DNA of 64,000 bases from Bugula neritina (lineage: Eukaryota > Bryozoa > Gymnolaemata > Cheilostomatida > Bugulidae). Made by a program: the position numbers and the translations under genes. The notes beneath the pieces are model-generated. The model saw only the letters and a list, made by a program, of their open reading frames with translations. It was not told where the DNA came from and did no database searches. Shown in pieces: positions 5,925 through 63,918 of this stretch (position 1 is the first letter of the stretch; each line of letters opens with the position of its first letter). Location of the stretch: NCBI GenBank assembly GCA_964035545.1, contig OZ037766.1, positions 12,099,722 through 12,163,721 on the forward strand, written 5' to 3'.

Positions 5925-6234
5925 CTAAATCGTTTCATCACAGACTTGGAAAATTTGACATAAGTCCTGCAACTTAAAACTACTTTAGTTTAATATATTG
6001 GTACATATATTAACTATTTTGTAATAGCAATATTTTTATAACGTATAACTTTCTTCAATATGCTAATGATTCTTTCTACTCTTTATCCTACTAATCAGTA
6101 ATGTAATAGAGCTACTGCAGATTTTCCATCTCTTTTAGGATACATCCATTATTGGAAAGAGTCTGATGGCTACCACTAACATAATCCATAGAGAATAAAT
6201 GACTAGTAGAAACCAGTTACGTTTCAGTTGAACT

Positions 6235-7035
6235 ATGGGGAGTATTTACAGTTGCTGTGTCAGGTCACCTAGGAATAGCCCCAAGGAAGCTGCAACTTCT
6301 GTGTCCTTCACACACAAAAATGTAGTTTCTGATCCTTTGGCTACTACTAAATCGCCAAACAAAGATGCCTTTCAAGAATTTTCCATTCTGCCTGAGGCTG
6401 GTGCTATACCAGTTCACGCAGGCTCTACTTCTTTATCAGTGCCTGATTCTTCAAGTGTCATTAATTTATATAACAGATATGTAAACCCAGACATGGGGCA
6501 AATATCAGCTGAAGGTATTGAACAGTTATGCAATGACCTTAATCTCAATCCAGAAGACTTTAGAGTTTTAGTATTAGCTTATTCTCTTGGTGCTCAAGCT
6601 ATGTGCCGGTTTACGGAAGATGAGTTTGTCAATGGTTGCTTACGGCTGGGCATCACTAGTGTGGAAACAATGAAACAATCGATTCCAAACCTGCTCAAAA
6701 GTGTTCAAGGTGCTTCATTCACTCCTTTTTATCAATGGACTTATAAATTTGCCCTTGATGTTGAAAGCGGTCAGCGAACACTCCCTGCCGATCTGGCCAT
6801 TAGTCTTTGGAAGCTTGTATTTTATCAAAATTGTCCTCCTATATTAGATAGATGGCTAGACTTTCTGCAGCATAATACGTCAATAAAAGGTATATCAAAA
6901 GACACTTGGGACATGTTTCTTATTTTTGTAAATCAAATTGGAGAAGATCTTAAATCGTATAATGATGCTGAGGCATGGCCAAGCTTGCTTGATGACTTTG
7001 TAGAAAGTCAACTAGCTCTTGCTGATAACATTTAA
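6235..7035 (+). CDS. DCUN1D3: DCN1-like protein 3 (defective in cullin neddylation)
   Basis: A 266-residue protein in one uninterrupted exon. The N-terminus MGSIYSCC has Gly2 for myristoylation and Cys7/Cys8 for possible palmitoylation, the hallmark of the DCUN1D3 branch, which is membrane-tethered. Residues ~80-262 form the potentiating-neddylation (PONY) domain: an EF-hand-like start, LVLAYSLGAQAMCRF, FYQWTYKFALD, and the cullin-binding C-terminus with the D-A-E-A-W patch followed by SLLDDFVE. Family knowledge: DCN1-like proteins act as co-E3 enzymes, bringing UBE2M/UBE2F~NEDD8 to cullin WHB domains. The type-3 member can also hold cullins at the plasma membrane. Length matches the family. 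A TTTCAG 11 bp before the ATG could close a 5'UTR intron. An AATAAA near 7362 may be the polyadenylation signal. Confidence 0.92.
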   Translation: MGSIYSCCVRSPRNSPKEAATSVSFTHKNVVSDPLATTKSPNKDAFQEFSILPEAGAIPVHAGSTSLSVPDSSSVINLYNRYVNPDMGQISAEGIEQLCNDLNLNPEDFRVLVLAYSLGAQAMCRFTEDEFVNGCLRLGITSVETMKQSIPNLLKSVQGASFTPFYQWTYKFALDVESGQRTLPADLAISLWKLVFYQNCPPILDRWLDFLQHNTSIKGISKDTWDMFLIFVNQIGEDLKSYNDAEAWPSLLDDFVESQLALADNI

Positions 7036-40262: not shown

Positions 40263-43200
40263 TCACAATTGCGTCTCCTTATACCTTGGAAACGCAACTC
40301 TCAATTGCTCGTCCCCCCAGATTTCTTTTATGATAGCAGATGGATGTTTTTCCACTGCATCACACAAGAAATCTTTTAAATAAGATGGAGGCGCCCTAGT
40401 GCGTTGGCTACGCTCCAACTGCACTGGGGAATTTGCTACGACTGGTGACTCTTCCACCACGGGTGGTGTCGCCAGTACGGGGGGGTCCACCAGTACGGGT
40501 GGCCCCCCCCCAGCTGCCTCTTCCTCATGATTTTGAGGAATTGCCATCTCATCCGGGACGATGGGCCTGTCGACCGGCTCCACAGGTGGTGGGGCCGGCT
40601 CCGACAGGTCTTCAGGTGTGTCGACCTCCTCTTCCTGGGGTGGAGGAGGTTGGGGCTGGTCGGCTGGCGCATCAGCCGCCCCGTCCTGATCTGGCAGTAT
40701 CTCCTCAATCTCTCGATATGCCATGGGTCGCCCCCTCATAGGAGGGCGCCTAGCTGGCTCTAAGAGAGGAGGTGCTTGACCTGCCGCATCAAGACTTGCC
40801 CAGTGAGGTTTTAGCCGTGCCTCGTTCTGGACCGACACTTGTCCAGACCGTTCCACTTTGTATGTATGATTTGGCATTACCTCAATTACGCAGTAGGGAC
40901 CTACGAACTTCGGCTGCAACTTGGCTGCCTGTCCGCGCCTGCGGCGATGACTGGTCATCCAGACCCAGTCCCCCACCTTGTATAAAGGTGGGTCGTCAGA
41001 GTCACCACTCCTGACCTGCCACTGCTGCTCACGTAGCACCTCGTGAGCCGTCCCCATGCGTTTTACGAGCTTGTCCACGTAGTCGTGGACATTGCTCTCT
41101 GGATTCGGAACATGATAGGTTACGTGCTCAGGAACCCTTGTTTCTCTCCCCAGCATGAGAAAATTAGGGGTCTCCAGTGTACTGGAGTGAGGGGTACTAC
41201 GGTACGCTCGCATGATCTGCGGCAACACCAAGTCCCACTCTTCCTGGCTCCTACCGATAAGCAGGCTTCTCAGAGAGTCCCCTAGCATTCGGTTGTTCCG
41301 CTCCACGACCCCGTTCCCTTGCGGGTGATACGGGGTCGTCCGACTCTGGTTTACCCCCCACATTCTACAGAGATCGCTCATAAGTTGCGACTGAAACTGG
41401 GCGCCCTGGTCAGAGTGTATCTGCTCCGGCAAGCCGAAATAGCAGAACACCTGTTGATCCAGAGCTCTGGCCACCGAGGGGGCCGACGCATCTGGAATAG
41501 CCAGTGCATCAGCCCACCGCGTGAAATGGTCAGTTAATACCAGTATCCAGTTATTACCTCTCGCTGTAGTGGGCATGGGGCCTACCAGATCGACAGCAAC
41601 CACCTGCCACGGACGACCGGCATGGAGGCGACGCCTCCCTGCGGTCTCAGTGGGGCGGCCATGCTTGCTAGCTTGGCACACCTCGCACTTCCGCACCCGG
41701 AGTCGGACATCCCGGGTCATACCGGGCCAAAACCACTGGAGTTGAAGACACCTGATCACCCGGCTAGCTCCTGCGTGAGCTTGCTTATGGGTGTCCCAGA
41801 TCAACTCCCGCCGCAGAGCTGACGGGCAGACTACCCTCTCTCGTTCACTGCGATTGGTGCCGACTGCCAACGTGATCGTTAGCAGCCCATCGCTGTTGAA
41901 CCTTAGGGAGTCCCAGCGGTCACAGAAGTACTTAAACTCAGTACTCTTCACTCGCTGTTCGGCCTCACTCGGCCGCCGTCCCTCCTTCTTGGCCCGGACT
42001 AGGTCAGCTACCACTCCTGGTAGCGTGGACTGGAGCCGACATAGCTCCCTGACGTTCCGAAGCAACGTGGGGTTTGCGTGAAGGTTGTTAACAGCCTTGT
42101 TGGGTGATTCGGACAGGAGTTGCCCTTCTTCCCAGCTGTACACACCCGCTTTCCCCAACTGCGCTTCGACGTCCGAGCGAGGGGGTCCACCGTCCCTGCG
42201 CTCGATATTCTGGCATTGCTTACACCCATCTGCCTGGCGGCGGCTGAGTCCATCTGCATTACCGTGTTTCTTACCGGGTCGATGCTCGATCCGATAAGAA
42301 AACTCTGCCAGGATCTCTAGCCAGCGCGCCACTTGGCTGGATGGTTCTGCCCGTCGACACAGCCATATCAGGGACGCATGATCCGTCCGAAGCCGGAATG
42401 TGCGCCCATATAGATATGGTCTAAAGTGTTTGACCGCCTTGACTACTGCCAAGAGTTCCCTCCTGGTTGTACAGTAGTTCTTCTCAGGCGCCGACAGGGC
42501 CTTGCTATAGTAAGCCACCACCACCTCGCGACCATCTTGGACCTGCGATAGCACCGCCCCCACATTATGGTTACTGGCATCAGTATCCAAAATGTACTCC
42601 TTCGCAGGGTCAGGATACGCCAAGATGGGTGCCTCCACCAGGCGATCCTTCAGGTGGTCAAATGCCTTCTGCTCAGCCTGCGTCCACTGCCATCGCACCC
42701 CCTTCGCGGTCAGCCGATTTAACGGCTGTGCCATTCCTGCGAAGTCTGGTATGTACTGACGATAGTACCCAACCAGCCCCAGGAACGCCCGCAATTCAGA
42801 GAGGTCGACAGGAACGGCCCAGTCCCTCACGGCCCGTACCTTCTCGGGGTCGGTGGCGACCCCGTCTCGACCAACTACATGGCCCAGGTACTTGACCTCG
42901 CATTGCAGTAATGCACACTTCGAGGGCTTCAGCTTCAGGTTAGCAGCTCGGAGTCTGTCGAACACCTCCCTGAGTCGACTGACATGTGTGTCGAAGTCGG
43001 GGGAGATGACGATGACATCATCGAGATATATGAGCAAGGTCTTCCAGTGCAGTCCACTCAGGACCTGCTCCATGAGTCGCTGGAAGGTGGCTGGTGCGGA
43101 CGTAAGTCCGAATGGCAACACCTTCCATTTCCAGAGCCCATCCCGCATTATAAACGCGGCCTTGTCCTGTGCTTCAGGACTCAGGGGCACCTGCCAATAC

Positions 43201-44837
43201 CCGCTTAACAAGTCCAACGTGCTGAAGAACTTGCTACCAGCTAAGGCATCGAGCGACTCATCGATCCTCGGGAGAGGGTAAGCGTCCTGGATGGTCACGC
43301 TGTTCAGCCTGCGATAGTCAACGCAAAACCTCCAGCTACCATCCTTTTTCCGAACCAGGACGACTGGAGAACTCCAGGCCCCATGGCCTGGCTCAATCAG
43401 GTCCCGGTTCAGAAGGTCTTGCACCTGACGGCTCACTTCTCTCTCCTTCTCAGGACCTAACCGGCGGGTCGGCTGCCGAATCGGCACCGTCCCCGCCGCC
43501 AGGGGTATCTCATGACGAACCGTCTCAGTCAGACCCATGTCATGGTCGCCGCAACTGAACACATCCTTGTACTCAGAGAGTAGCCGCGCCATCTCCAGGC
43601 GTTCTCGCTTGCTCTCACAGCCATCACAGGCATCCTCGTACAACTCTGCTACGTGTTCAGGCACCGGCCCCCTGCCGTCTCTAGTGGGTACTCCCTGGGC
43701 ACCGTCCGCTGTTTCCAGCGCGGGCCCTACATCCTCCTCTTGCACGGAGTGGAACTTCCCTACTAGAGACCCAGCCGGTAATTCTACCGGCTCCGTGAAA
43801 GGGTTTACGCACTGGACCAGGAACTCCCTCCGCTCATCCAGTCTATTCAGACTGTTAGCGAGCTGGACGCCCCCCAGTGCACCTTCCACCACTCCGAGTT
43901 CGGAGATCTCCCTACAGTTCACTCTGCAGCGAACTGTAGCCCGGGAGCGCCCAGGTACAGTACAGCGCTGTACCACCTGCACTCCCCCCACCAAAGGTCG
44001 GCCAAATCGGTCGACACAGGCCAGCTCACGCCCCGCCATCACTACTGCCGACTTGCTAAAGTCGATGTAGCACCTGTGTCGCTTCAGAAATGGCATGCCC
44101 AAGATGGCATCCTCCTTGAGTTGACTGACGATGAAGGTCTCACTGATCATCTGATCACGGACTCTACCAGTCAACTGGATTACCCCATAGAAAGGAATAC
44201 ACGACCCGTCCGCCAACGTGCCGTGTTCCCCTTCATATGGTTCTAGGCTAGCCCTGTCCTTGGCACTGAGAGTGTCGAAGAGACGCCGACTCAGTAGATT
44301 TGTGGTACACCCAGTATCCAACAGGAATGTGGCAGCTTTACCAGCAATTTTGCCGGGGAGGAAATAGCTGCTTCCATATGGCTGGGCGCTCACTGAGCGA
44401 TTTGTCTCTTGAGGCGACACCTCATGTGCATGGAATTGGGGATGCACCTGTGCTTTTCGGTTGCGAGGGGGTCGTCGACGTTGCATGGGCGGGCAGGGTA
44501 CGTCTCGGTCTCGCTCACACACGGGCGGCCGAGTGAGTTCTCGGACTGATGCTCGTGTGGGCAACTGAGGAAAATCCCTGTTGTGCTCCCATTCGTCGTT
44601 CACTCCCTCATCAAGCAAACCTTCAAAGCGGTTTTTGAGTGCCCAAGCCGGAGGTATTGGTGGGCCTTGCGGCCGACTCACTCTCCTTGGGACTTGCCAC
44701 TCTGGCGAAGGCGGCCTCCTCACCCGATGGGGTGGGAGCCGTAGCCTTTGCCTTGGGGGGTTAAACTCGGGCCCACGGTAGGCGGAAGTTACCGTGGGCC
44801 GTCGCTGTTTAACCGCCTCCCACTGCCGCGGAGGCAA
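40263..44837 (-). CDS. pol: gypsy pol polyprotein (protease, RT, RNase H, integrase)
   Basis: 1524 codons from the ATG at 44837, though translation probably enters by -1 frameshift from gag. Protease: FLLDTGCTTNLL (~residue 172). Reverse transcriptase: FCVDYRRLN, STLDLLSGYW and YLDDV (~604). RNase H: ILDTDASNHNVG and RTDHASL. Integrase: HHCC zinc module (HKQAHAG ... CEVCQ), then the D, D, E triad in AVDLVGP, HSDQGAQF and GNGVVERN. A GPY/F-type module (KFVGPYCVIEV) and a 200-residue proline-rich, acidic tail with SQRTRAPPSYL end the protein. All catalytic residues are present and no stop interrupts, so it looks functional. Length is at the upper end for the family because of the tail. Confidence 0.95.
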   Translation of the reverse strand: MPPRQWEAVKQRRPTVTSAYRGPEFNPPRQRLRLPPHRVRRPPSPEWQVPRRVSRPQGPPIPPAWALKNRFEGLLDEGVNDEWEHNRDFPQLPTRASVRELTRPPVCERDRDVPCPPMQRRRPPRNRKAQVHPQFHAHEVSPQETNRSVSAQPYGSSYFLPGKIAGKAATFLLDTGCTTNLLSRRLFDTLSAKDRASLEPYEGEHGTLADGSCIPFYGVIQLTGRVRDQMISETFIVSQLKEDAILGMPFLKRHRCYIDFSKSAVVMAGRELACVDRFGRPLVGGVQVVQRCTVPGRSRATVRCRVNCREISELGVVEGALGGVQLANSLNRLDERREFLVQCVNPFTEPVELPAGSLVGKFHSVQEEDVGPALETADGAQGVPTRDGRGPVPEHVAELYEDACDGCESKRERLEMARLLSEYKDVFSCGDHDMGLTETVRHEIPLAAGTVPIRQPTRRLGPEKEREVSRQVQDLLNRDLIEPGHGAWSSPVVLVRKKDGSWRFCVDYRRLNSVTIQDAYPLPRIDESLDALAGSKFFSTLDLLSGYWQVPLSPEAQDKAAFIMRDGLWKWKVLPFGLTSAPATFQRLMEQVLSGLHWKTLLIYLDDVIVISPDFDTHVSRLREVFDRLRAANLKLKPSKCALLQCEVKYLGHVVGRDGVATDPEKVRAVRDWAVPVDLSELRAFLGLVGYYRQYIPDFAGMAQPLNRLTAKGVRWQWTQAEQKAFDHLKDRLVEAPILAYPDPAKEYILDTDASNHNVGAVLSQVQDGREVVVAYYSKALSAPEKNYCTTRRELLAVVKAVKHFRPYLYGRTFRLRTDHASLIWLCRRAEPSSQVARWLEILAEFSYRIEHRPGKKHGNADGLSRRQADGCKQCQNIERRDGGPPRSDVEAQLGKAGVYSWEEGQLLSESPNKAVNNLHANPTLLRNVRELCRLQSTLPGVVADLVRAKKEGRRPSEAEQRVKSTEFKYFCDRWDSLRFNSDGLLTITLAVGTNRSERERVVCPSALRRELIWDTHKQAHAGASRVIRCLQLQWFWPGMTRDVRLRVRKCEVCQASKHGRPTETAGRRRLHAGRPWQVVAVDLVGPMPTTARGNNWILVLTDHFTRWADALAIPDASAPSVARALDQQVFCYFGLPEQIHSDQGAQFQSQLMSDLCRMWGVNQSRTTPYHPQGNGVVERNNRMLGDSLRSLLIGRSQEEWDLVLPQIMRAYRSTPHSSTLETPNFLMLGRETRVPEHVTYHVPNPESNVHDYVDKLVKRMGTAHEVLREQQWQVRSGDSDDPPLYKVGDWVWMTSHRRRRGQAAKLQPKFVGPYCVIEVMPNHTYKVERSGQVSVQNEARLKPHWASLDAAGQAPPLLEPARRPPMRGRPMAYREIEEILPDQDGAADAPADQPQPPPPQEEEVDTPEDLSEPAPPPVEPVDRPIVPDEMAIPQNHEEEAAGGGPPVLVDPPVLATPPVVEESPVVANSPVQLERSQRTRAPPSYLKDFLCDAVEKHPSAIIKEIWGDEQLRVAFPRYKETQL
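44770..44813 (-). promoter_or_regulatory. -1 programmed ribosomal frameshift signal, gag to pol
   Basis: On the minus strand the heptamer GTTAAAC (44813-44807) is read in the gag frame as G TTA AAC. A 6-base spacer follows, then a perfect 11-bp stem (GGCCCACGGTA paired with TACCGTGGGCC) with a 9-base loop. The gag stop lies within the hairpin. A -1 slip places the ribosome in the pol frame (VKQRRP...). Heptamer frame, spacing and stem all match known viral -1 signals. Confidence 0.85.
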
Positions 44838-45658
44838 CTTCGTAAGAAGTGCCCACCGCTACCACAGCCCCAGCATACGGGGCCGCGCCTGTCGGCGACA
44901 GCTACCGACGACCTCTTGGGTCTCTCGGCTGTCGCCTGCTGGCGCAGTTGCCTGAACTCGGCGAGCAGTTCTCGAATCAAGCTCGTGGTTAAGCTAGATT
45001 CGTCTGCTGCTGCCGCTGCGACTTGTACAGCTGTCTTCGTTGACGACGTCGACACGTCGTCTGCCCCGACTTGCTGTACTGTCGCGCCAGGTCGACTTGC
45101 ACTGTCGGCTTGGAAATAGGCATTCCCAAGCCTTAGAGCTCTCTCCATAGTCTCAACTTCGGCCACCAGCAGATGCTGTTTAAGACCGAGGTTGTTAATA
45201 GACTGGAGGAATGCATCCAGTGCTAGGCTCTGTCGACCATCGGCAGGCAAGTCGCTGTAAGCAACTTGTGCCAGTCGTTCGACTACGGTAGCGTGCTCTC
45301 GCAGATTGGTCTTAGGATTTCTCCTAAGACTCTGCAGTTGCACGCGAGCATCTCGAGCGGTTAATCCAAACCTAGCTCGTATTGCTTCAAATATGTCACC
45401 GACATTCTGGCTTATCCCATAGGGTTTAGCCGGCCCTGTCAGACACAACCGCAGCTGGATCAGAGTAACCCTATTCGGCCATCCGCAGATGTCCGCCACA
45501 TCACTGAACTCAGTGATGAATTGCTCCACATCTTCTTCTCCAGAGAAGGTGGGAGCCCGCAAGTGGTACCTGTCCATAGGCAGCGCTGGGCCGCCTATGT
45601 GATCCTCCTCCATTGCTGCTGGCTCCTGTCGGGGCGCGTCGACGACTTCGTCGGCCAT
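44789..45658 (-). CDS. gag: gypsy Gag protein
   Basis: 289 residues. The start ATG (MADEVVDAPRQ) is the first in the transcript after the primer-binding region. Residues ~30-180 have the retrotransposon-gag capsid pattern: FSGEEDVEQFITEFSDVAD, WP.....QLRLCLTGPAK, then the helical segment with LREHATVVERLAQVAY. One CCHC zinc knuckle, CWGCGSGGHFLRSC (C-x2-C-x4-H-x4-C), lies near residues 262-275 for RNA binding. It overlaps pol by 49 bases, in the frame expected for -1 shifting. Gag forms the particle in which reverse transcription occurs. Confidence 0.93.
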   Translation of the reverse strand: MADEVVDAPRQEPAAMEEDHIGGPALPMDRYHLRAPTFSGEEDVEQFITEFSDVADICGWPNRVTLIQLRLCLTGPAKPYGISQNVGDIFEAIRARFGLTARDARVQLQSLRRNPKTNLREHATVVERLAQVAYSDLPADGRQSLALDAFLQSINNLGLKQHLLVAEVETMERALRLGNAYFQADSASRPGATVQQVGADDVSTSSTKTAVQVAAAAADESSLTTSLIRELLAEFRQLRQQATAERPKRSSVAVADRRGPVCWGCGSGGHFLRSCLRGSGRRLNSDGPR

Positions 45659-45696
45659 CTTACTCCCTGACTAGGGGCATTTGTATTAAGTGAGAT

Positions 45697-50673: not shown

Positions 50674-53462
50674 TTTGGGAAAAATACCTAAGATTTCTAA
50701 CACCAAGTAAGCCAAATGGATATAATACTAGGTAAGTCAGCTAATGCTATATCTATTAAGGAGATATGTAGTAACCTTACAAAACAGCTGTGTGGTCTAT
50801 TAATCTAATTAACTATTATAATTGGCAAAATAATTCTGTTTGTAGGCCAAAGAATCAAAGCTACTTTATGGCATGGAAGATGGGTTCGAAACATAGCTTG
50901 TATGAACTGAGCTCCATCTGCTAATGTACAGAGCTCTAAAGAGAAGACAATTTTTGTAATGGCTGAGCCAACAGGTAGCCATTTTTTCACAAGTGTTCTA
51001 TTTTGCTATTTATTTCTTGTTGGCATTAATTATGTTTCTCTTTTGCTGCTTCAACTCCTCGGTTGATGTAATACGTATTTGTTTCAAATAACAAGAAATA
51101 ATTCCGTGTATCAAATGATGGGAATAATAACTGCAACATTTTCTCAAGTTGGGAAATATGATTAAGCAACAAAGTTCTATCATTAACATTAAGCAGTGGT
51201 AATTGCTATCTGTGATGTATTGGCTCTTGCTTTGTTGAACCGAATCAGCTGATTGGTGGAGCTATAGTAATTATTACACTCTCAAATCTATATATGGGTA
51301 TGGCCGAGCCTGTGAAATATGATATAGGAGTTAATATGCTGTGCTGCCGTAATTCATATTGTTGTCTATAATGTATGCTTGTAATTACCTACATTCTGTA
51401 ACTGTGAAGGGCAATCTTTACCTGCTTGTTAATAAGTTAATTAAGATTTCCAAAGCAGGCATCTCTCTGTATAATAATTACTCGATTGCTCTTTCTCTAG
51501 TTTCTTAATGGTCTCCCAGTCTATAATATAGTTTGGGGCAGTGCACAGTACACACTTCTAATGCAGATTTGCTTGCAATAGTATCTGAGGCTACACATAT
51601 ATGCTTGTAGTGTATGAATAAGAAGACTTCCTTCCTAAGACGTATAGCCAGCTAGCAAGGAGGTGGATAGAGAATATCTGTATCTCATTACTCTATAATC
51701 TGTTCGAGCAAGTTTTCTTCTAAACTCTTGAATTTTAAAACCCTGAGGTAAGTATCAACTTGATGTGGACAAATGGCCTCATGTGTAGGACCAGTTTTTG
51801 AAAATACTGCTGTATACTATAATGCTATTCTTAAATTGTGTGTAGTGTTTGAAATGATAAACTGATTTGTTTTACCTGCAATCTAGAAACACTAATGTCT
51901 TTAGGATTTATCAATATATGTACAAGTTCGTTATTTTGTTAAAGCAGTTTTAAGTTGCTAGCCTAAAGCTAACTTTTTGCTAAGAGTTGTACAATTTATC
52001 TGCTAGTATTTCTCAATTTCTTTATATAGCAATTTAATAATGCCAAAACTGTTTTTGTGTACAAGCAGTGCAGGCTTTTTGTCACTGAGGTAAAGTGTTG
52101 TGTACCACAGAACCAAAATTCTTATATTTGTTGAAGGGTCATGTGCTTGTGAAAAAATAAATAGTAGACCTTTGCTAATTTTTGTGGAGTTTGAATTGTG
52201 TTTTCATTAAAAATCATTTCAAAAATTAAATTATTCAAACTGAGTCAAGCGAAGTGTTGTTCGCTCAACTCTAAATTACACCTACTGTTGATTTATTTTC
52301 AAAATTCAATTTGAATTTATGTTCAATAACTTGACTTTACTTTTATGAGTTTTATGCAGTTCTGCTCATCAATTTTTTGACTAGTCTAACTAAAACATTA
52401 TTTCAATTTTTAAATGAATTTTGGCTGCTTACAAAAACTGTGACCTTTCTTAGAAGTACAAGAACAAACTTAGCAAACTTGTTGTCCGTACTTATCCTAA
52501 AGTCAATATTTTAAACTTCTGTTTTCCTTTAATAGATTAGAGAATTTAACAAATTCAAGCTTTATTTACATGATCATAGCAGTTCCTCTCATGCTTGCTT
52601 CAAAATGGCTGACTTGATCAGCTTGTCTTTATGAACTATACTTCAATACCTGACTGACCTTTTGGATTGTTAAGCATATTATCTAATGACGAGTCTTAGT
52701 TCATTAGGCATTTGATTGCTTGCCGGTGTTCTAGAACAATCCTTCATTATAATATTGTTGCGATGATAACTTCCCAGTTGATATTTCTGCTCATTAGTCT
52801 CTCAGCGATTTATTATTTCTTTGCTTTGATGGCTGCCTTAACTCAGAAAGTGTATTGATGGTGCTATAAATGATGCTAATTATGATATTTTTAAATTAAT
52901 TAGTCAGCTACAGTTAGCATCTGTAGAGGTGTGTGTAGTGAAGTATAATATATACCAATTGCTTCTTCAGTCTTAGTCTAACTAGTATGCAGTCTGTACA
53001 GTCTGTACTTTGAACTGTATACTCACACACGCTGTACTCACACACCTTGTCCACATACACATTGTTCAGATACACATATACCTAACTATTGTATATTTAA
53101 ACCCTATATGCTTCTACACTGTATGCTTCTACACTGTATACTTGCTCACTTTTACTTGTCCTACACTCTGTACTCACATGCTGTGTCCTTACACATTTTA
53201 TACTTAGACTATTCTTTTGTTTAGTGCTATTCTCATTCACCAGAGAGTGTGATGTCAACATACTAACTCAGAGACCTGTTTACCTGTTTAATAGTAGCTC
53301 AGGTTGTACAGTGCACTACCTCTACCTGTTGCCTATGAAATTGCACTGGATACTGCTATTAGACTTTATAGGAAGTTGAATTATTCTTTAGGCTGATGCA
53401 TAATGCAATTATGTAATTATTGACAATGTAACATATACTGAACTTTGTATATTTCAGACAAA
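50674..53462. other. 5' flank of the calponin gene
   Basis: A strong donor, ACCCTGAG|GTAAGTATC, with its exon edge at 51747 is a candidate for a noncoding first exon spliced to the acceptor TTTCAG at 53457, six bases before the start codon. At 52980-53190, degenerate ~20-bp units of the CTGTACTCACACA and GCTTCTACACTGTAT type form a pyrimidine-biased tandem repeat. The promoter was not located. Confidence 0.4.
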
Positions 53463-56400
53463 ATGGCCAACAGAGTACACGATATGGGAATGGACAGAGC
53501 ACAAGGCTCAAGGGTATGTAGAATCAAACAACACATTGACTTTGCAGTTAAACATTTGAGGTAGGTGCAGTGATGGAGAAATTGAGAAACGCCTGTGATC
53601 TAGAATAGAAATGTAGCAAAAGAAGTTATGTCCACGTGAGAATTTCAACCCGTGCCCCAAACCAAAATTAAATAAAAAAAAAAAACTTAGGCTACCTCAA
53701 TTTCTCCACTACTGCTCCTAAATGACTGTGCAATGCCAAGCTCTATAAATATTGTAAAATATTGATTCTCAAGCATTTCCGATTAGCTTCTATGATCTTA
53801 TTATTTCATTGATATATTTCATCAAGTGTTGTGCTAAAACTGTGGGTTTTTATTTCGAAGACATTTTTTGTACTTTATTTTTTATTTTAAGGCAATTCAG
53901 GTATCAGAATTTTAGATTTACTTTTTAAAATATTTTATTTGGTTTAGTTTAACCATTCACCAATACTAGTAGTCTGGTATATTATGGTGTTTCTGGTCGT
54001 GATAGTTAAACCAGCCATGACTCTAACTTGCGTTATTAAGTGAGTTTGACGCTAGTTAGCTAGTTAGGGTTGGCGGAACCAAATAAATAATTTTCCAGAA
54101 TTTCTTATGACTTTTGGTAATCTACTACATAGAAAGAACCTTCCCTTTGAGCATCTTCTACTAATTAACTACTAGTTACTTTAGCAGTACTCATAATTAC
54201 CTGGTATCATCTGCATGTATACAAACTATAAGATATGCCTGGGAACTTCATTGATGTAATCATAGCCCTATATATTCATACTTTGATTAGTTATATAGGG
54301 ATTATATTTAGTAGTTATGGATATTATATACCATTCATTATAGAATTGCATGATGGTGATACTTATCTGTTTTCCTTGGTTTTTGCTACTTTGTGAAGAC
54401 TACAGTTTAAAGTTTCCACTGAGATTTGTTATTCAATCTACAATAACTACAAACAGAATAAAAAAATATTCACTTTAAATCAATCTGGGAGAAAAATAGA
54501 AAATTTTTATTTTTGTAATAAGAGTATTTAGTAGGAAAAACTTTTCTTGTACGAAAACATGAAGTAATGCTATAACAACATTAATAAATTTTTTATTAAA
54601 ATAATTTTTACAAAAATCAAAGAATGGTTGCATAAAGCCCTGTTAATATTACTTAGTTGGCAGTCCTAACTCAAGGCGCAACATTGTGTTAATTGACGCA
54701 TTTATTTCTGAAAGTTCAAAAAGTATTTTACGCCCCAGCTGATTGTGTTTGAAAAATAATAAATTGCTATGCAGAAGAAGAAGGTGCAATCTTATATATT
54801 TTTTTTTCTCTATAGCTTCAAAATTTTTTGTTGCTGATGATTTAGAAAGCTTTAATTTAGTTAGAATATAAATGATTTCATTGGCCTATTGGTTATAACA
54901 AAGGCCTGGTGTGACACAGGTTATGGGTTCAAATACCAGCACGGCCATTGGTGATGTCAGGAAGATCATCCAATCATATTTGCTCCTGTGTCACAGTAAA
55001 AGCTCTCAAACCATGTTGCTAGCGTAGTCACAGTTCTTAACCCACTCATAAACCCTTGTAATCAGGGATGAAGACTTTAAACAAATGTGATTTTTTCAAT
55101 AAACCTTTTCATTATATTTTGTCTCTTAAGTTTGGGAAGCTTTAGAAAATGCATATTGAAGATTTGAAAACGGAGTTTTGAATTTAAGGATTCTGTGTCT
55201 TAATTGTAGTAATCTAATATAGGGATTAATTTGCTATTTAATATTTAAGTGCAGACTACTTGTACAATACTTTTTGTAAGCAGGATATTAAAACTCAAAC
55301 ATTCAAAGAGACAGCTGCTGATGGCACTGTCACCGTTACAACACGTACCACTACTACGTATGAGGGAGGGGTGAGAGTCGGTTTGCTACGACCTTTATAT
55401 GTTACCCTGACCTTTAAATGTTTCCTTGACCTTACCTGCTGCTTAAGCTATGATCATTAATTGATGGCGCAATGCTTGATGAACTGATTGTGCAAATGCC
55501 TGCAGCTGTTATAAAGCGCATAAGGAATTCAAAATATTTCCATAATGAAGAGCCAAAACGGTTTGGTATGCTCGCAGTAAAAATAGCTAACGTCTGTTTT
55601 CGTTTCGAAGATATTTAAGCAAAACCAATAATTCCAACACACATTGCTCTACGCTGACCCTAAAGCAGTTTGTCTCTGTTAACCCACCTTGTCATTCTGA
55701 TGTCTTCTTTGCTGATGGAATGTGAAAGTCTTACCTAAAAGTCGTGTTTTGACCTCAAAACCAACTTCTTGTCTTTAGCCAGGTAAGCCTAGAATATGCA
55801 TTGAAATGTTATTGCAATTGTTTTCAATCGCTAGAGACTTGATTTTAGTTTTGTTTTATGATATTAACATAGTAAATGTTTCGTGAATTGATATTACGAA
55901 ACTGAACAGTGTTGTGATAATATTTTAGAGAACTGAGGTTCAGGAAAGTAAAGAGGTTCACAAACCTCAACAGCAAATTGTAATAAAACAACCAGAGTCA
56001 CGGCGGCGACAGGTTTGCTATAAGTTTTCTGATCTAAATAGTATAATATATACACATGTAGCCATAACCATTGCTGCTATAGATAATACCATTACTTATC
56101 TTGTTGGTTTGGTTTTGACTGTACAATCACATTTACTGTTCTGTGTAAATGATGTGTATATATGCATGGAAAACTGTTATTTGGGTTTATGCTAAAGCTG
56201 TGTCGCTAGTACAACCTTGTAAAACTATCTGTAGGATGGGAGAACTGTTGAAGAGGTTTTGCCGGATGATAGTGTGGTTAGAAGAAGAACCTCCAGGAGT
56301 AGAGTATCGTCCAGCAGTGGTGATTCGTTGACTTCTCGTAGATTCCAACGTGTATGTATAGTAGTCAATTCATGGTTCTTGTATTTGTGCTATATTCTAT

Positions 56401-59400
56401 AGCTCAAACATAGTTTATATGCTATTTAATGTTACATATATTTATGTTCTAATACACATTGTATAAAATAATTCCAAATATCATTACATAGTCGAGTATT
56501 ACATATAATAACCATTGCTGCTATAGATAATACCATTACTTATCTTGTTGGTTTGGTTTTGACTGTACAATCACATTTACTGTTCTGTGTAAATGATGTG
56601 TATATATGCATGGAAAACTGTTATTTGGGTTTATGCTAAAGCTGTGTCGCTAGTACAACCTTGTAAAACTATCTGTAGGATGGGAGAACTGTTGAAGAGG
56701 TTTTGCCGGATGATAGTGTGGTTAGAAGAAGAACCTCCAGGAGTGGAGTATCGTCCAGCATTGATAGCAGTGGTGATTTGTTGACTTCTCGTAGAGCCCA
56801 ACGTGTATGTATAGTAGTCAATTCATGGTTCTTGTATTTGTGCTATATTCTATTCAAACATACTTTATGATATTCAGTGTTATATATATTTATTTTCTAA
56901 TACGGTTGTATAAAATAATTCCACATATGTTTTTACATAGTAGAGTATTAAATATAATAACCATTGCTGCTATAGATAATACCATTACTTATCTTGTTGG
57001 TTTGGGTTTGACTATGCAATCACATTTACTGTCCTGTGTAAATGGTGTGTATATATTCATGGAAAACTGCTAAAGCTGTGTCGCTAGTACAACCTTGTAA
57101 AACTGTCTGTAGGATGGGAGAACTGTTGAAGAGGTTTCGCCGGATGATAGTGTGGTTAGAAGAAGAACCTCCAGGAGTGGAGTATCGTCCAGCTTTGATA
57201 GCAGTGGTGATTCATTGACTTCTCGTAGAGCCCAACGTGTATGTATAGTAGTCAATTCATGGTTCTTGTATTTGTGCTATATTCTATTCAAACATAGTTT
57301 GTGATATTCAGTGTTATATATATTTATGTTCTAATATGTGCTGTACAAAATAATTCCATATATCATTACATAGTAAAGTATTAAATATAATAATCATTGC
57401 CACCATAGATAATACCATTACTTATCTTGTTGGTTTGGTTTTGACTACACAATCACATTTCCTGCTCTGTGTAAATGATATGTATATATTCATGGAAAAC
57501 TGCCATTTGGGTTTATGCTAAAACTGTGTCACTAGTACAGCTTTGTAAAACTATCTGTAGGATGGGAGAACTGTTGAAGAGATTTCGCCGGATGATAGTG
57601 TGATTAGAAGAAGAACCTCCAGGAGTGGAGTATCGTCCAGCATTGATAGCAGTGGTGATTCGTTGACTTCTCGTAGAGCCCAACGTGTATGTATAGTAGT
57701 CAACTCATGGTTCGTGTAGTGGTGCTATATTCTATAGCTCAAACATACTTTATGATATTCAATGTTATATGTGTTTATGTTCTGAGACATGTATAAAATT
57801 GATTGCATTGACTATATAGTAAGGTATTACATATAATAATGTAGAACGCCGACACTGCTCAGGAACTTGAGGATGATGACTCAATGAATATTGTAAGACG
57901 CTCTCGGACAAGCTTGCCTGGGCGCAGCAGAATTACCCATAGACGTATTGGAAGTGAATATAAGGCGGTAAGCTCATCAACGTTTTTTCTATGACTATTA
58001 ATACTTCTGCTGAAATCAAAACTTTAAAGATTATATATTTCAAAAATCTAAGTTTGAATATTTGTATTTTGTTTGGGAATTTTATCAAAGTCCATAAGTT
58101 GTCAAGTTCTGAACCGAAGTATTCAAGCAAGTCATTGTCTATCCCAGTGAATCTGGTGACATTCTCAATAATGTTGTGTCATATTTCTTTTGCTTACAAA
58201 TTTGCATTTTTAGTATTTCAAGCTGCAAGTTTCTGCAACCACACATTCTTATTACATATGTTGTTGCATGATATGACAGCATTGATGCTGACTAGATTGA
58301 TGTCAGTGTGCGGCTAATATTTCTAGTCAAATGAAGACCAATCAGAAGAAGGCATCTCTTCGAGTTCTCAGCATAGCTTTTCCTATGGAGGTGACGGTGA
58401 AAGCCAAATATTTCGTACAGGTTTAGAAGATAACTTGCATAGTGTGAGTAGTTAGTGAATGGCAATTTGACAAATGTAAATGCCATTCTTGTGATTTTGT
58501 GTGTTTCATGCTCCAGTTTTACTCTGCGTACATTTTAAAGGCAAATTTTAGGTAAATAAAAGAGAGTATGAACGAGATACCAGAAAAGACCCATTTTCTT
58601 CAACTTCAACTTCAACAACTAAATTTGAGTACGGAGAGAGTAGAGATACTGCTCCTACTTTACAAAAAGTAGAAGGCCTCCCAGAAGAAAATGATGATGT
58701 GGTGAGGAAGGAGCAGCCATATGTGTTGACCCAAGACCCGATAAGTTCACCCGTACCCAGTCTATCTCTGCTGTCTATTCCGTGCTTTACCCACGCTACC
58801 ACCATCCTTCTCACCATATATATGACTCATCATTTGACATTGTTTATAAGTAGTGCTCCAACTTTAGTATTGTACCCAGGGTTAGCGTAGTGTTGCATTG
58901 TAGACCAACAGTCACCTGCTTTTAGTGTATGTTATTACTGTTATCCCCGCTCCACTTTTATTGATATTTTTTGTTTAACTTAAAAAAAATTCTTTTCTAC
59001 TACTCACTTAGCTTGGGAGCCCTGCGTTCCCAAGTTCTTGAGTCAGTTTCAAATGTCATGTAATAAACTTGTTAGCATCTGTATCACTAAATATATACAC
59101 ATATTGTACATAAAGCACCATTTTTACATGTAGTAATATTATGGCAATAAACTATTCCAAACAAGAAAGCCACCGTCTGGTTATTGCATGCTATAATAAC
59201 TTTATATACTGCTGCTGTCCTTAGCAGTATTCATATTCACTTGCAGGAACTATTATATTATTTTATTATTATACTATTATATCGCTGTAAATATAATAAT
59301 AGTTGAGAGTGTATTTTGTAGCTGCTGGCTAAATATGATTATGGAGCTGAAAATGAAGTAAGAGAATGGATCCAAGCTGTAACTGGTACCAGTATTCCTG

Positions 59401-62400
59401 AAGGCCCAGATAATGTATACAGAGAGCTGAAAAGTGGAGTTGTGCTGTGCAAGTAAGAGTATAAACAACAGAAAATTCATGTCTTTTATGTCTTCAACCA
59501 TTTAGTAATTAGTACAATTTAGCTGTAACCTAATTTTTGGTAAACTTTTAGTTGTTAGATGCCTCTTATTACATGTTTAAAAAAACATTACACGGTAATT
59601 AAAAGTTGAAAATAGGCTATACTTCTCTTTTTTACACCTACAGTTATACTTTCTTCTTACAATCAATCTTGAAATAAATTAAACTTTTATGAAGAAATTT
59701 TATGTTTATGGTTGCCTGAAGCAAAAAGTTTCAACTGTATTTAGACTCTATGGTAACTTCATAGTCTTGAATAGTTGGTATTGATGTTAGTGATAGCTGT
59801 GAATTCAATGGAACACCTTAGCTTGTGTTTTAACATTTGGTTTGTCTCCTTTTAGCTTAATTTCTGCTCTTTATGATGGATCTTCTAAGTTATCTCCTGA
59901 AGCTCAAGCTTTCCGGCCAAGGATTAAGTCAAGTAACATGGACATTGCCTTTAAGCAGGTAAAGTTTCATAGCAGAGCATTCTTCTATTAGTATTGTGCT
60001 ACTGTCACTCTTTTGGCAGATTAGCAATTGAACTCTTCTGTTGTAAGATTCACACTTCTATAATAATTCCGTCAACTTATTTGGAATTTAATGTATTTAA
60101 ATTACTGATTATCTTAATAATTTATCTTTACTATAAAGTTTTAAAATACGGTAAAGTAAGTTCAGTATACCAGATCTTCATATATAGTAGTTTTCTTTCA
60201 AAATAATGATGTAAGGCTAAGAGATTTTATTACGTTATAATACTTGTAATTTATATGTAATAAAGTTGCATGAGTTTGCTTTTATTTTTCAATAATTATG
60301 TTGTATGATACGGTAATTATACTTATAGTTTTATGTATTCTGCAATAATTTCTATGTCAATATTTTCTTTTCTCAGCCTGACTGCATTTTTCCATACCTC
60401 ATTACTTACTGGCCTTTGCCAATTTCATAAAAAGTCTTAGTTTTTTCTCAGTAAATTAGTTGATCATGTTGTTAGGATGCTGATAAAAAAGATAACACTG
60501 AGGTTGGTTTTTGTACAGCTAAAGCTATTAGCTATAGCATACCTATTACATGTGCCACAAAGTTACCTGTCTCTATGTGTGTTCAGTTTAACAGAAGTGT
60601 CACTTTGCCAGCTGAAAAACTTGTATAATGCCCATTATAGTGAAACGTTCCTGTTTATGCTTATAAGATTATTTGCAACAGGACATTTCTTCCAAGAGTA
60701 ACTTGGTCAAAATAAAGTAAATACTTGAACAATAGCTGTTAAGTATTGCGTTCTGCAGTATACTGATAAATTCAATCATACATACTTTTATAAGTCTGAA
60801 TCATTGCAGCATATTTTGCTTGCCTCTGTCTAAATCCCGTACCCTGTACCTCGGTTATATCCTCAATACACCTGTATTGTACAGTGTTGACTGTATTGGT
60901 ATGTTGCAACCGTAAATGTTGTTCACCTTTCAGCGCCATGTCCTGATTGGGTGGCGGTATGTTGCAGCCGTAATTACTCCTCCAATTTGCACACTTTGTG
61001 ATGCAGGATGTAATATTGTCAGATTGCTTACTATATTACATGCATAATTGTGAAATTGTGTTATATATTTTACTAGTTACAATGAATGTAATAGTAATAC
61101 AGGGTGTACACTTTTATAAGTTTTATAGTTTTCAGCAGTAGCATGTGATGTATCACTTGTATAGTTATTAAAACAAATTGTTCAACATTTGTAGATGGAG
61201 AATATTGAGATATATTTGAAAGCTGCCTCTTTATATGGGGTTCCAATCACTGGCATCTTTCCAACTGTAGACCTATTTGAAAATAGGAATCTAGGTGCCG
61301 TCATAGCAGGTCTTCAATCACTTGGTAGTGAGGTAATGGAATACTTTGCTCTTGATCTACCGGCCCCTTCAACCCTTCAATTATGTTAACAATACTAGCT
61401 GGCTAACATTTCTAGTAGATTCTTCTTTGGTATTCCAAATAACGAAGATGCTAATGGTTGCCAAACTACTGTATGTTGTTATTTTTATGCTGATATTTCT
61501 CTCTTGTTTGACTCTGAACTTATTCAATAGCAGAAAATATTGATATTGTCAGGCACAGAGACATGAATTCAGTGGTGCTACATGCGGTCCCAAACCAACC
61601 GTAAAAAATAAGAGGAACTTTACTATGGAACAGCTCAAAAATGGCGACTCTATCATTGGTCTTCAGTCAGGTAGGTTATAATGCAATGAGTATCAGATGT
61701 GTTACTGGAATATAGTATTTTGTATGGCTTAGTGGTTTTAATGCATAAAATAAGTGGGTCTTTTAAACACATTCTGCTGATTTTCGTATCTGGATTTGAA
61801 AAATATTTAGAGAATACTTTGTTTTTAAATGTCTATTTATATTATATTACTGTGTTTTATACAATACGTGCACATGTATGTATATATCATTATGTGTAAG
61901 AACTGATATTTTCTTAAGTTTAAACTTTAAACAACTTTTTGGAGAAAAGTTAAACAATAACTGTATCTTAAGGCCAATAAGCACGTTTTATGCTGAAGAG
62001 TGGGCTGATGGAGAATTTGTGATGATAGCCTTACTGCATGTTATAAATTTCCTACATTAGAATGCATGTTTTCTGCAGTGAATGTAAATAGTGCAGTAGC
62101 TGTTGATCAGACAACTCTTAAACATTGCAACTGCAGAATTTGTTATTCGTTTAGTCTGTCATTCAACGTGATACAGTGTACCCATCTTTTGTTTTTTTCC
62201 AGATTTCTTTATCTAATTGCTATACATATTAATGAGAAGCAGTGTTTAACCATCATAGGGTGGGCAGATTTGGCTGGTTTTAACACTTGACACATCAAAC
62301 TAAATTATTTATTTAATTGAAACCTTACACCCCCAGTGCTACCTTCCTCTGTCCTGTCTTACCAAACCACCACCTAGTCTTGTGATTCTAGGTACCAATA

Positions 62401-63918
62401 AGTTTGCTTCACAAAAGGGAATGTCAATGGGTGCTGTCCGTCACATTGCGGACATCCGGGCTGATGACATGAATCAAAACGGGCAAGGAATTATCAATTT
62501 GCAAGCAGGCACCAACAAATTTGCCTCGCAGAAAGGAATGAGCATGGGTGCTGTTCGTCATATTGCTGATATTAGAGCTGATGATATTAATCAAGACGGG
62601 CAGGGATTTGTTCAGCTTCAGTCTGGTTAGATAAAGCTCTTTTGAATTTAGTATCCATTTTTAGAAAGCAATTTCTTAAATTCACTTTCAATTCTTCCAA
62701 CATTTAAAGTCTCATCTAAGACATTGACTATTTATTTCCAATATTCCTATAAAACTATGCCAAGTAGATTATTCCTTAATTCTTACTTTCTCACTGTAAG
62801 CCAACATGTAATAGGATCACAGCTGTTGATAATTACATAACCAAAGTTATGATAATAAGCTCCAAAGTCCTTTAGGTACTATTTACTAACTTTAGCAGTT
62901 ATGACTTTATGTAGGAATAAATAGTTTTCTATAATCTTCTTTGATTCAACATGCTTAAATATTTTGGATGCATAAATTTTTTTATATCATTAAATAAAAT
63001 TTGTGCCTTGACAGTGTTTTTGCCGCACATGCTGCTAAGCTCTCAGTAGTGTAAAGTTTCTTGATGGCTTAAACTAATCATAGATGCCAAGTGTTTGAAG
63101 GAAATAGTAGGCTTTATATGCTTTAGATGATATATATGTTTTCTGCCACCACCTACATTGCTTGATTGCACTACTTGTAGTACCTAAAATCTACTCAAAA
63201 TTGTAATGCTGTTAATTGAAATTTTTGGGATTCTAGTTTTGTATATGATGAGCTGGCAAAGTATAATCGGTAGCGATTTGATTTAAATGACGTCTAGGTA
63301 CCAACAAATTTGCTTCGCAAAAGGGAATGTCAATGGGTGCTGTCCGCCATATCTCTGATATTCGAGCCGATGATATGGATCAGAATGGACAAGGAATTAT
63401 CAATTTGCAAGCAGGCACTAACAAATTTGCCTCGCAGAAGGGAATGAGCATGGGTGCTGTTCGTCATGTTGCTGATATTCGCGCTGACGATATGAATCAG
63501 GAAGGGTGTGGTGTCATTGGCCTTCAGTCAGGTATAATTAAATAAGTCATTTAGAATTAGTCTCAAAGTGTCCTAGAATTCTGCATTGAAGAAAGGCTAA
63601 TGCTTCTTTCAATTCTTTTTTAAACTTGGTTTATGCAAGAATACTTGGAGTAACCTGTTTTAAAGTAAGCGCGGGCTATTGTAGGTACAAATAAGTTTGC
63701 TTCACAAAAAGGTATGTCAATGGGTAAAGTACGTCATATTGCCGACATTCGAGCTGATGATATGGTGCCAGAAGGGCATGGTCAAATACAACTTCAGTCA
63801 GGTACAAATAAGTTTGCATCGCAGAAGGGTATGTCTATGGGGAAAGTAAGGCATATAGCAGATATCCGTGCCGATGATTTGTCTCGGGACGGAATGGATC
63901 ACATTCAGTTACAGTCAG
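53463..63918 (+). CDS. calponin-family protein with CH domain, long variable N-terminal insert and calponin-like repeats (5' part)
   Basis: Exons: 53463-53513, 55284-55370, 55929-56012, 56235-56351, 56679-56804, 57113-57238, 57561-57686, 57845-57967, 58327-58443, 58552-58701, 59322-59452, 59856-59958, 61195-61332, 61553-61670, 62392-62625, 63298-63531, 63685-63918, then past the window. Residues 1-17 (MANRVHDMGMDRAQGSR) match the start of calponin/transgelin proteins. The next nine exons (352 residues, all phase 0-0) have no counterpart in the family and interrupt the usual linker. The CH domain follows (LLAKYDYGAENEVREWI ... VYRELKSGVVLCNLI ... VDLFENRNLGAVIAGLQSLG, ~370-493), then a first calponin box (IGLQSG) and six 39-residue repeats (GTNKFASQKGMSMG...RHIADIRADD...LQSG). 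Family knowledge: CH plus such repeats binds and bundles actin in invertebrate muscle. Start is the family-conserved MANR. Confidence 0.88.
53562..53720. mobile_element. MITE, copy 3 of the TAGGTGCAGTAGTGG family
   Basis: Begins TAGGTGCAGTGATGGAGAAA and ends TTTCTCCACTACTGCTCCTA. The interior matches copies 1 and 2. It lies in intron 1 of the calponin gene, 48 bp after the donor. Confidence 0.8.
54875..55075 (+). mobile_element. tRNA-derived SINE, older subfamily
   Basis: Head with TTGGCCTATTGGTTA and the B-box variant TGGGTTCAAATACC, core GGCCATTGGTGATGTCAGG then AAGATCATCCAATC, and a tail with AAAGCTCTCAAACC shared with 36425-36610. It lies in intron 1 of the calponin gene. Confidence 0.75.
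56064..57837 (+). repeat. four tandem copies of a ~445-bp exon-plus-intron unit
   Basis: Units start at 56064, 56508, 56957 and 57390, each beginning ATAA[CT]CATTGC. Each holds one exon with intact AG|GATGGG acceptor and CGT|GTATGT donor. Exon 1 is 117 bp and lacks one ATTGATAGC block; the other three are 126 bp. Encoded sequence: DGRTVEEV(L/S)PDDSVVRRR, then TSRS(G/R)VSSS, then a GDSLTSRR end. Unit 3 lacks a 15-bp intron piece (TTATTTGGGTTTATG), which explains its shorter period. Intron and exon parts are similarly conserved, so the duplications are recent. The last unit abuts the acceptor of the next exon, which has a similar DDS...VRRSRTS layout and may be an older copy. Confidence 0.93.
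62392..63918 (+). repeat. duplicated 234-bp exons, each encoding two calponin-like repeats
   Basis: Exons 62392-62625, 63298-63531 and 63685-63918 all have phase 1-1 and exactly 234 bp, and start GGT ACC/ACA AA(T/C) after joining. Each encodes two 39-residue repeats. The third has K in place of A in MSMGKVRHIADIR. More copies are expected beyond the window. The 62625 donor (TCTG|GTTAGA) is weaker than the others (TCAG|GT). Confidence 0.9.

What the first reader, a model, noticed from the sequence alone, without database searches (positions are those of the whole stretch)
55284..58701. Nine consecutive phase 0-0 exons inserted between a calponin N-terminus and its CH domain
Every exon from 55284 to 58701 is a whole number of codons (87, 84, 117, 126, 126, 126, 123, 117, 150 nt) with phase 0 on both sides. 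The flanking exons 53463-53513 and 59322-59452 also meet in phase 0. Joining those two directly recreates the normal calponin start (MANR... followed by LLAKYDY). Any combination of the nine can therefore be spliced in, allowing N-terminal inserts of 0 to 352 residues in a family whose N-terminus is usually short and fixed. This looks like a combinatorial splicing cassette in a muscle actin-binding protein. I know of no described calponin with this layout.
Basis: partly seen in the sequence, partly recalled or inferred. Interest (0 to 1): 0.88.

Follow-up and report, generated by a model that had tools for sequence, protein, structure and literature searches.

The report
Giant calponin with duplicated N-terminal exons
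A moss-animal gene for an actin-binding protein has nine extra exons, partly recent copies of one another, in front of its actin-binding domain, and the gene appears to run on into a titin-sized calponin with about 240 calponin repeats; whether the nine exons are mixed and matched is unproven.

Summary
The nine exons are real candidates at the stated coordinates: all are 3n, phase 0-0, AG/GT-flanked and at least slightly G+C-richer than their introns. The same scan found almost nothing in 18 control introns. The 0-0 pattern is not nine independent facts. Four exons (56235, 56679, 57113, 57561) are copies in one 434-448 bp tandem array including introns, and a fifth (57845) is a diverged copy. 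Joining 53513 to 59322 does restore a calponin start, and three paralogs examined share that phase-0 boundary.

Combinatorial splicing is not shown. In the same locus, 82 of 86 calponin-repeat exons have AG and GT exactly where a symmetric (1-1) exon needs them, so symmetric phase is what exon duplication leaves behind. The larger result lies outside the window. The gene appears to continue to C2:12219910 as about 100 exons and 10,400 residues, with 244 calponin (CLIK) repeats detected, 135 of them in one 15.8-kb exon. A 2023 review gives 23 as the highest number reported. Chromosome lengths identify the genome as Bugula neritina. Transcripts could not be examined.

The parts
53463..53513 (+). 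start exon, 17 codons MANRVHDMGMDRAQGSR, ends in phase 0; preceded by an AG at 53456-53457, so an upstream 5' UTR exon is likely
55284..55370 (+). insert exon 1, 29 aa, phase 0-0
55929..56012 (+). insert exon 2, 28 aa, phase 0-0
56064..57783 (+). tandem array of four ~434-448 bp units (exon plus flanking introns)
56235..56351 (+). insert exon 3, array copy 1, 39 aa (9 nt shorter than the other copies, in frame)
56679..56804 (+). insert exon 4, array copy 2, 42 aa
57113..57238 (+). insert exon 5, array copy 3, 42 aa
57561..57686 (+). insert exon 6, array copy 4, 42 aa
57845..57967 (+). insert exon 7, 41 aa, diverged relative of the array exon
58327..58443 (+). insert exon 8, 39 aa, phase 0-0 (recovered only at G+C >= 0.40)
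58552..58701 (+). insert exon 9, 50 aa; weakest coding evidence, 3' end uncertain
59322..59452 (+). CH-domain exon 1 (phase 0 start, phase 2 end)
59856..59958 (+). CH-domain exon 2
61195..61332 (+). CH-domain exon 3
61553..61670 (+). linker exon after the CH domain, ends in phase 1
62392..62625 (+). CLIK exon, two calponin repeats, phase 1-1
63298..63531 (+). CLIK exon, two calponin repeats, phase 1-1
63685..63918 (+). CLIK exon, two calponin repeats, phase 1-1; the array continues beyond the window to C2:12219910

Best explanation
The nine exons encode a disordered, charged N-terminal extension of one giant calponin gene. New symmetric exons arose in, or were inserted into, the phase-0 intron that separates the calponin start exon from the CH domain, and one of them then multiplied by tandem exon duplication. 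The same process, in phase 1, multiplied the CLIK exons at the other end to 244 detected repeats. Most likely most or all of the nine are spliced in as a block in at least one isoform, and a short isoform joining 53513 directly to 59322 may also exist. The protein would bind along actin filaments through its CH and CLIK repeats, with the extension as a flexible arm. Shown by sequence: exon anatomy, duplications, shared junction in three paralogs, open giant repeat array. Inferred: single transcript, actin binding, role of the arm, isoform choice.
For: Exons and phases verified. Enriched over control introns. Tandem array with introns. Pfam CH 5.2e-16 and Calponin repeat 1.3e-25 for the join without the insert. 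CH exons of three paralogs (C1, C3, C6) start at the same phase-0 boundary, and the C3 paralog has a likely 18-codon start exon with a 4.0-kb intron there. CLIK exons: AG at 84 of 86 and GT at 84 of 86 predicted phase-1 boundaries, against at most 13 and 18 of 86 at shifts of 1 to 6 bases. Gene model: 99 exons, one terminal stop, 10,007 aa, all 98 introns GT-AG after two boundaries were adjusted and one exon left out; with one more 1-1 exon about 10,400 aa. Repeats 0-5 and the last two complete repeats are 0.74-1.00 identical to repeat 0, while repeats 6-7 and 220-232 are 0.38-0.64. pN/pS 0.12 among 55 single-repeat exons and 0.10 among 68 A-type repeats. Insert: FoldIndex -0.135 against CH +0.172; no Cys or Trp.
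Against: No RNA evidence at all. Among the four array exons the changes are almost all amino-acid changing (8 nonsynonymous and 1 synonymous, counted by hand from the codon list), so protein-level constraint on the insert is not shown. Exon divergence is lower than intron divergence but not significantly over all four copies (8 of 117 against 32 of 250, p = 0.11; p = 0.04 for copies 2-4 and 0.07 for copies 1, 3, 4). B-type repeats show pN/pS 0.82. One CLIK exon (90147-90263 in continued window coordinates) has AT instead of GT as donor and was left out. No relative with the insert was found. The 15.8-kb repeat exon is longer than the mean HiFi read of about 9.7 kb, so its repeat number may be off.
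Confidence: 0.68

Rival explanations
1. Combinatorial cassette: the nine exons are included in many different combinations, giving N-terminal inserts of 0 to 352 residues.
For: All nine are phase 0-0 and 3n with AG and GT at their ends, so any subset keeps the frame. The four array exons have near-identical splice sites and so no obvious rank order.
Against: 82 of 86 CLIK exons in the same locus are equally skippable by their splice positions, so the signature is not specific. No transcript data.
Confidence: 0.15
2. Mutually exclusive choice among the four near-identical array exons, Dscam-like.
For: Tandem homologous exons of near-equal length and equal phase.
Against: RNA duplex energies between the array introns and six unique intron stretches are no better than shuffles (for copy 1, 17 to 49 of 60 shuffles as good; shuffles were run for copy 1 only). 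Inclusion of two copies would not break the frame. Exon copies differ by only 3-5%, so there is little to choose between.
Confidence: 0.05
3. Some or all of the insert exons are decaying or unused duplicates: open by recency, rarely or never spliced in; the normal product starts MANR...LLAKYD.
For: Excess of amino-acid changes in array exons and a 9-nt length difference in copy 1; no insert found in paralogs or database proteins; exons 8 and 9 have weak G+C contrast.
Against: Nine in a row with open frame, AG and GT; the one exon indel is 3n while intron indels include 1, 2 and 15 nt; enrichment over control introns.
Confidence: 0.12
4. The CLIK array downstream is not one gene: the window's calponin ends early, and the array is a second, CH-less UNC-87-like gene or a repeat expansion with alternative ends.
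For: UNC-87 shows that CH-less CLIK proteins exist (PMC10285543 and PMC2963174 passages); introns of 1.5-5.0 kb interrupt the array.
Against: The modelled junctions run on in phase 1 with no stop before C2:12219908-12219910. Canonical repeats at the two ends are alike: the last two complete repeats are 0.85 and 0.90 identical to repeat 0.
Confidence: 0.2

Closest known systems
Multi-CLIK invertebrate calponins (mussel calponin-like protein with 5 repeats; up to 23 in molluscs; passages and section 4 of PMC10285543)
   Same: CH domain at the N-terminus followed by a run of CLIK repeats
   Different: about 240 repeats instead of at most 23, an exon carrying 135 of them, and a 352-residue N-terminal insert
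UNC-87 of C. elegans (passages of PMC2963174 and PMC3280177)
   Same: tandem CLIK repeats; in UNC-87 these bind along and stabilise actin filaments, more repeats stabilising more
   Different: seven repeats and no CH domain
calponin-1-like isoform X3, Littorina saxatilis (P0001)
   Same: 53% identical over 31% of the query; its start also joins right before VLAKYD
   Different: 387 aa, short start peptide MAMEYYRKK, no insert
Nebulin (features recalled; compared here only by a Pfam search of this genome)
   Same: works-like comparison only: a very long run of short actin-binding repeats in one giant protein
   Different: a different repeat; not claimed as a member

Membership tests
calponin family | N-terminal CH domain | tested here: met
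   PF00307 5.2e-16, residues 27-142 of the joined protein; solved calponin and transgelin CH domains match
calponin family | CLIK repeats after the CH domain | tested here: met
   PF00402 1.3e-25; 244 repeats with score above 20 in 86 exon groups of the locus; 242 with score above 20 in the final model protein
calponin family | binds F-actin | not testable with these tools
   needs a binding assay
alternatively spliced cassette array | exons are frame-neutral | tested here: met
   also true of 82 of 86 CLIK exons by splice position, so not specific
alternatively spliced cassette array | transcripts differ in exon content | not testable with these tools
   no RNA data available here
mutually exclusive exon cluster | paired intron elements or other exclusion signal | tested here: not met
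   duplex test no better than shuffles; other exclusion signals not tested
nebulin | nebulin repeats (PF00880) | tested here: inconclusive
   in the genome the profile gives one partial match, on C4 and not at this locus (22.6 bits, over the Pfam cut-off, E 0.034); a Pfam scan of the CH part plus two CLIK repeats and of the insert listed no nebulin match. Only a works-like comparison is made

The most novel reading that the evidence does not exclude
Bugula has evolved a nebulin-like giant from a calponin: about 240 CLIK repeats lie along a thin filament as a ruler or stabiliser (at one repeat per 5.5-nm actin step, a spacing recalled and not measured here, about 1.3 um), with the CH domain and a splice-variable nine-exon arm at one end setting where the molecule starts.
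Probability: 0.12. Interest if true: 0.9.

Novelty: new variant of a known kind. Interest (0 to 1): 0.6.

Why it matters
If the whole locus is one gene, it is a megadalton calponin with roughly ten times the highest repeat number given in a 2023 review. It would be a natural test of whether CLIK repeats, reported to stabilise actin increasingly with their number (PMC3280177 passage), can scale to a whole filament. The nine-exon insert suggests exon duplication at both ends of one gene in two different intron phases, and it warns against reading symmetric exons as alternative splicing.

Tried and rejected
Ubiquitin matches of the insert in the solved-structure search (best whole-sequence E 8.6e-10; 146 sequences at E <= 1, 60 shown) were rejected: the strongest ones have no single stretch that passes on its own, and rows with a passing stretch are at E 0.11 or worse. 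The query there left out two of the four array exons.

Kinase-type motif R[RK]x[S/T]: 8 in the insert against 2.3 in shuffles (6 of 2000 as good), but 2 against 0.94 (468 of 2000) once only one array copy is kept, so the excess is just duplication.

Docking/selector pairing: negative. The inverted repeats I2 and I3, pairing array introns with 59091-59117, were treated as chance.

'84 of 84 non-terminal CLIK exons are 3n' is true by construction of the model, because exon ends were set from repeat matches in one frame. I therefore do not use it. The test that counts is whether AG and GT stand at those ends.

Homologue searches: 533-aa query; 2 of 7993 scored candidates pass, aligned over 31 and 30% of the query; 1392-aa query, region 1-640; 4 of 7986 pass at E <= 0.01, all with CLIK repeats, named as nematode proteins, 17-20% of query covered; 3333-aa repeat region; 3719 candidates, none passes. 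One search did not return any known CLIK protein either and is not evidence of absence. The Pfam scan of the insert gave only two matches far below cut-off. Rfam and tRNA scans of the window were empty.

The PF00402 search of the genome listed 40 matches in all where the direct scan of this one locus found 244 repeats, so the nebulin result (one partial match) is a weak negative too.

A first synonymous/nonsynonymous count on the four array exons (ratio 1.57) had the 9-nt gap misplaced and is replaced by the codon list. My first complete gene model was out of frame because I set one exon end one base too far (61333); one search corrects it. One search failed to place the 116-kb exon; one search does. 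A diverged repeat exon near 64254-64373 has no good acceptor and its 5' end was chosen by alignment. The C3 paralog at 23.1 Mb (L037) and other CH-bearing loci were not compared at the junction.

Literature: 10 of 10 searches used. For calponin with Bugula or Bryozoa the listings held only a barnacle proteomics paper and a kinase review, neither opened. 'Giant calponin' and 'hundreds of calponin' had no occurrence in the 15 of 28 papers listed. Ono 2021, the source of the '23 repeats' figure, was not read.
Full report
The window lies at C2:12099722-12163721 of a 215.8-Mb genome. The contig lengths 35,640,107, 33,575,671, 32,418,041 and 16,049,455 match chromosomes 1, 2, 3 and 6 (35.64, 33.58, 32.42, 16.05 Mb) of Bugula neritina tzBugNeri2.1 in PMC11480708 (found; passages seen). 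The species is therefore inferred with high confidence. That assembly is HiFi-based with QV 53.7.

Observation. All nine exons have the stated lengths, phase 0 on both sides, AG before and GT after, and no stop. Seven of nine have G+C 0.44-0.48 and the last two 0.40 and 0.37, against 0.28-0.36 for the introns. A blind candidate-exon scan gives 7 clusters at G+C >= 0.44 in the 5.8-kb region, recovering 7 of 9 exons exactly. It gives 0 in 18 control introns (17,968 bp) and 0 in the matching intron of a paralog. At >= 0.40 the figures are 9 clusters (8 of 9 exons plus one other), 1 and 0.

What the nine are. Exons 3-6 and their introns form a tandem array (TRF 56064-57783; families D1-D3). The first two units share an identical 171-nt 5' intron stretch (0 of 171 differences), while other pairs differ by 4.5-10.9% there; exons differ by 3.2-5.1% and the 3' intron parts by 8.5-11.7%. 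Exon 7 is a diverged relative. The symmetric phases of these five are therefore inherited, and the array is recent. Substitutions among the four array exons are nearly all amino-acid changing (codon list), and slower evolution of exon than intron is suggestive only (p = 0.11 for four copies, 0.04 and 0.07 for two subsets). The insert is rich in S, R, T, D and E (59%), has one Met, no Cys and no Trp, and is predicted disordered by a simple charge-hydropathy index. It has no Pfam domain above cut-off. Its exons have no convincing match elsewhere in the genome (exons 3-9; exons 1-2, off-locus matches only at E 9.8).

The junction. Without the insert, the protein has a CH domain and CLIK repeats and aligns to solved transgelin-2 and calponin CH domains. 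CH exons of paralogs on C1, C3 (30.5 Mb) and C6 begin after a phase-0 intron at the same place (LVSRYD, LNAKYD, LASKYD). The C3 paralog has a likely start exon MASTRATKSGVNKDIQDK followed by a 4,000-nt intron without candidate exons in the 3,979 bp scanned. Start exons for the C1 and C6 paralogs were not found with the patterns used. The insert thus sits in an intron position that the family already had. Exons added in a phase-0 intron must be 0-0 to keep the frame, which is a simple reason for the pattern.

The rest of the gene. Downstream DNA (L009, L028-L032) was joined to the window. A profile of the 39-residue repeat found 244 repeats with score above 20, in 86 exon groups. Of the 86 groups, 82 had both AG and GT exactly where the repeat phase predicts. 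Taken singly, AG was there in 84 and GT in 84 of 86, against at most 13 and 18 at shifts of one to six bases. Of the four exceptions, two had partial 5' matches and were adjusted, one is the terminal exon, and one (90147-90263 in continued window coordinates) has an AT donor and was dropped. The resulting model has 99 exons, 98 of 98 GT-AG introns (two by choice of boundary), a single terminal stop ending at C2:12219910, 10,007 residues counted with the stop, and 1.06 MDa. An open frame in the 5-kb intron near the 3' end adds a phase 1-1 exon, best read as 116447-117652, with nine TTYQQPGN repeats; its donor is weak. The total is then about 10,400 residues. One exon, 92884-108678 (15,795 nt), holds 135 repeats of two types (68 and 67). 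It is 96-99% self-similar at unit offsets, the longest exact self-repeat is 1,633 bp, and 38 of 67 unit sequences are distinct. Mean HiFi read length is about 9.7 kb, so the count may not be exact.

Selection on the repeats. Variant codons give pN/pS of 0.12 for 55 single-repeat exons, 0.10 for 68 A-type repeats, and 0.82 for 67 B-type repeats, with no stop codon among single-base variants (a crude count against the commonest codon). The first two argue that the array is translated; B does not.

One gene or several. The modelled CLIK exons join in phase 1 throughout. The opening repeats (0-5) and the last two complete ones are 0.74-1.00 identical to repeat 0, while the other repeats printed (6-7, 220-232) are 0.38-0.64 and the class sequences C, A and B 0.38, 0.46 and 0.49. 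That is what internal expansion of a small calponin would leave. Alternative ends inside introns cannot be excluded.

Mechanism. From the literature passages seen, increasing numbers of CLIK repeats progressively stabilise actin (PMC3280177). UNC-87, with seven, has been suggested as a functional homologue of nebulin or Xin in an animal that lacks both (PMC2963174). A genome search for nebulin repeats gave one partial match, a weak negative given that the same tool under-reports repeats. The most likely role is side-binding and stabilisation of actin by the CH and CLIK parts, with the nine-exon product as a disordered arm. How the arm is used is inference.

Verdict on the reading offered. The layout is real, and I saw no calponin described with it in 10 literature searches (listed in Tried and rejected; open-licence papers only). 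The combinatorial claim goes beyond the evidence: the same property holds for nearly all CLIK exons of the same locus. I rate it 0.15, against 0.68 for a duplicated, largely block-included N-terminal extension of a giant calponin.

Noticed in passing
L029:9590 to L031:5423 (C2:12192589-12208422), beyond the window: An uninterrupted open frame of 5278 codons holding 135 calponin repeats.
   Followed up: yes
continued window coordinates 116447-117652 (L032), in the last large intron of the gene: A phase 1-1 exon candidate of about 400 residues with nine TTYQQPGN-type repeats.
   Followed up: partly
continued window coordinates 90147-90263: One CLIK exon whose donor reads AT instead of GT, an apparent dead copy in the array.
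   Followed up: partly
L033, L034 (C1:268-275 kb, minus strand): A paralog with a CH domain and many CLIK repeats, also in repeated exons.
   Followed up: partly
window 40266-45670, minus strand: A Ty3/gypsy-like retroelement (class name recalled): 1531-residue open frame with protease, reverse transcriptase, RNase H and integrase matches, and a neighbouring 293-residue frame without a Pfam match.
   Followed up: no
window 24157-24520, plus strand: Tandem repeat in an open frame (VKPVPSE / VKPEPME type, 21-bp unit, 17 copies) followed by a Ser run.
   Followed up: no
window 6232-7032, plus strand: Frame with a Cullin_binding domain (PF03556, 7.4e-30), a DCN1-like protein (name recalled).
   Followed up: no
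window 58702-58890: Open, relatively G+C-rich stretch right after insert exon 9 with a further candidate 58717-58866; possible alternative donor.
   Followed up: partly
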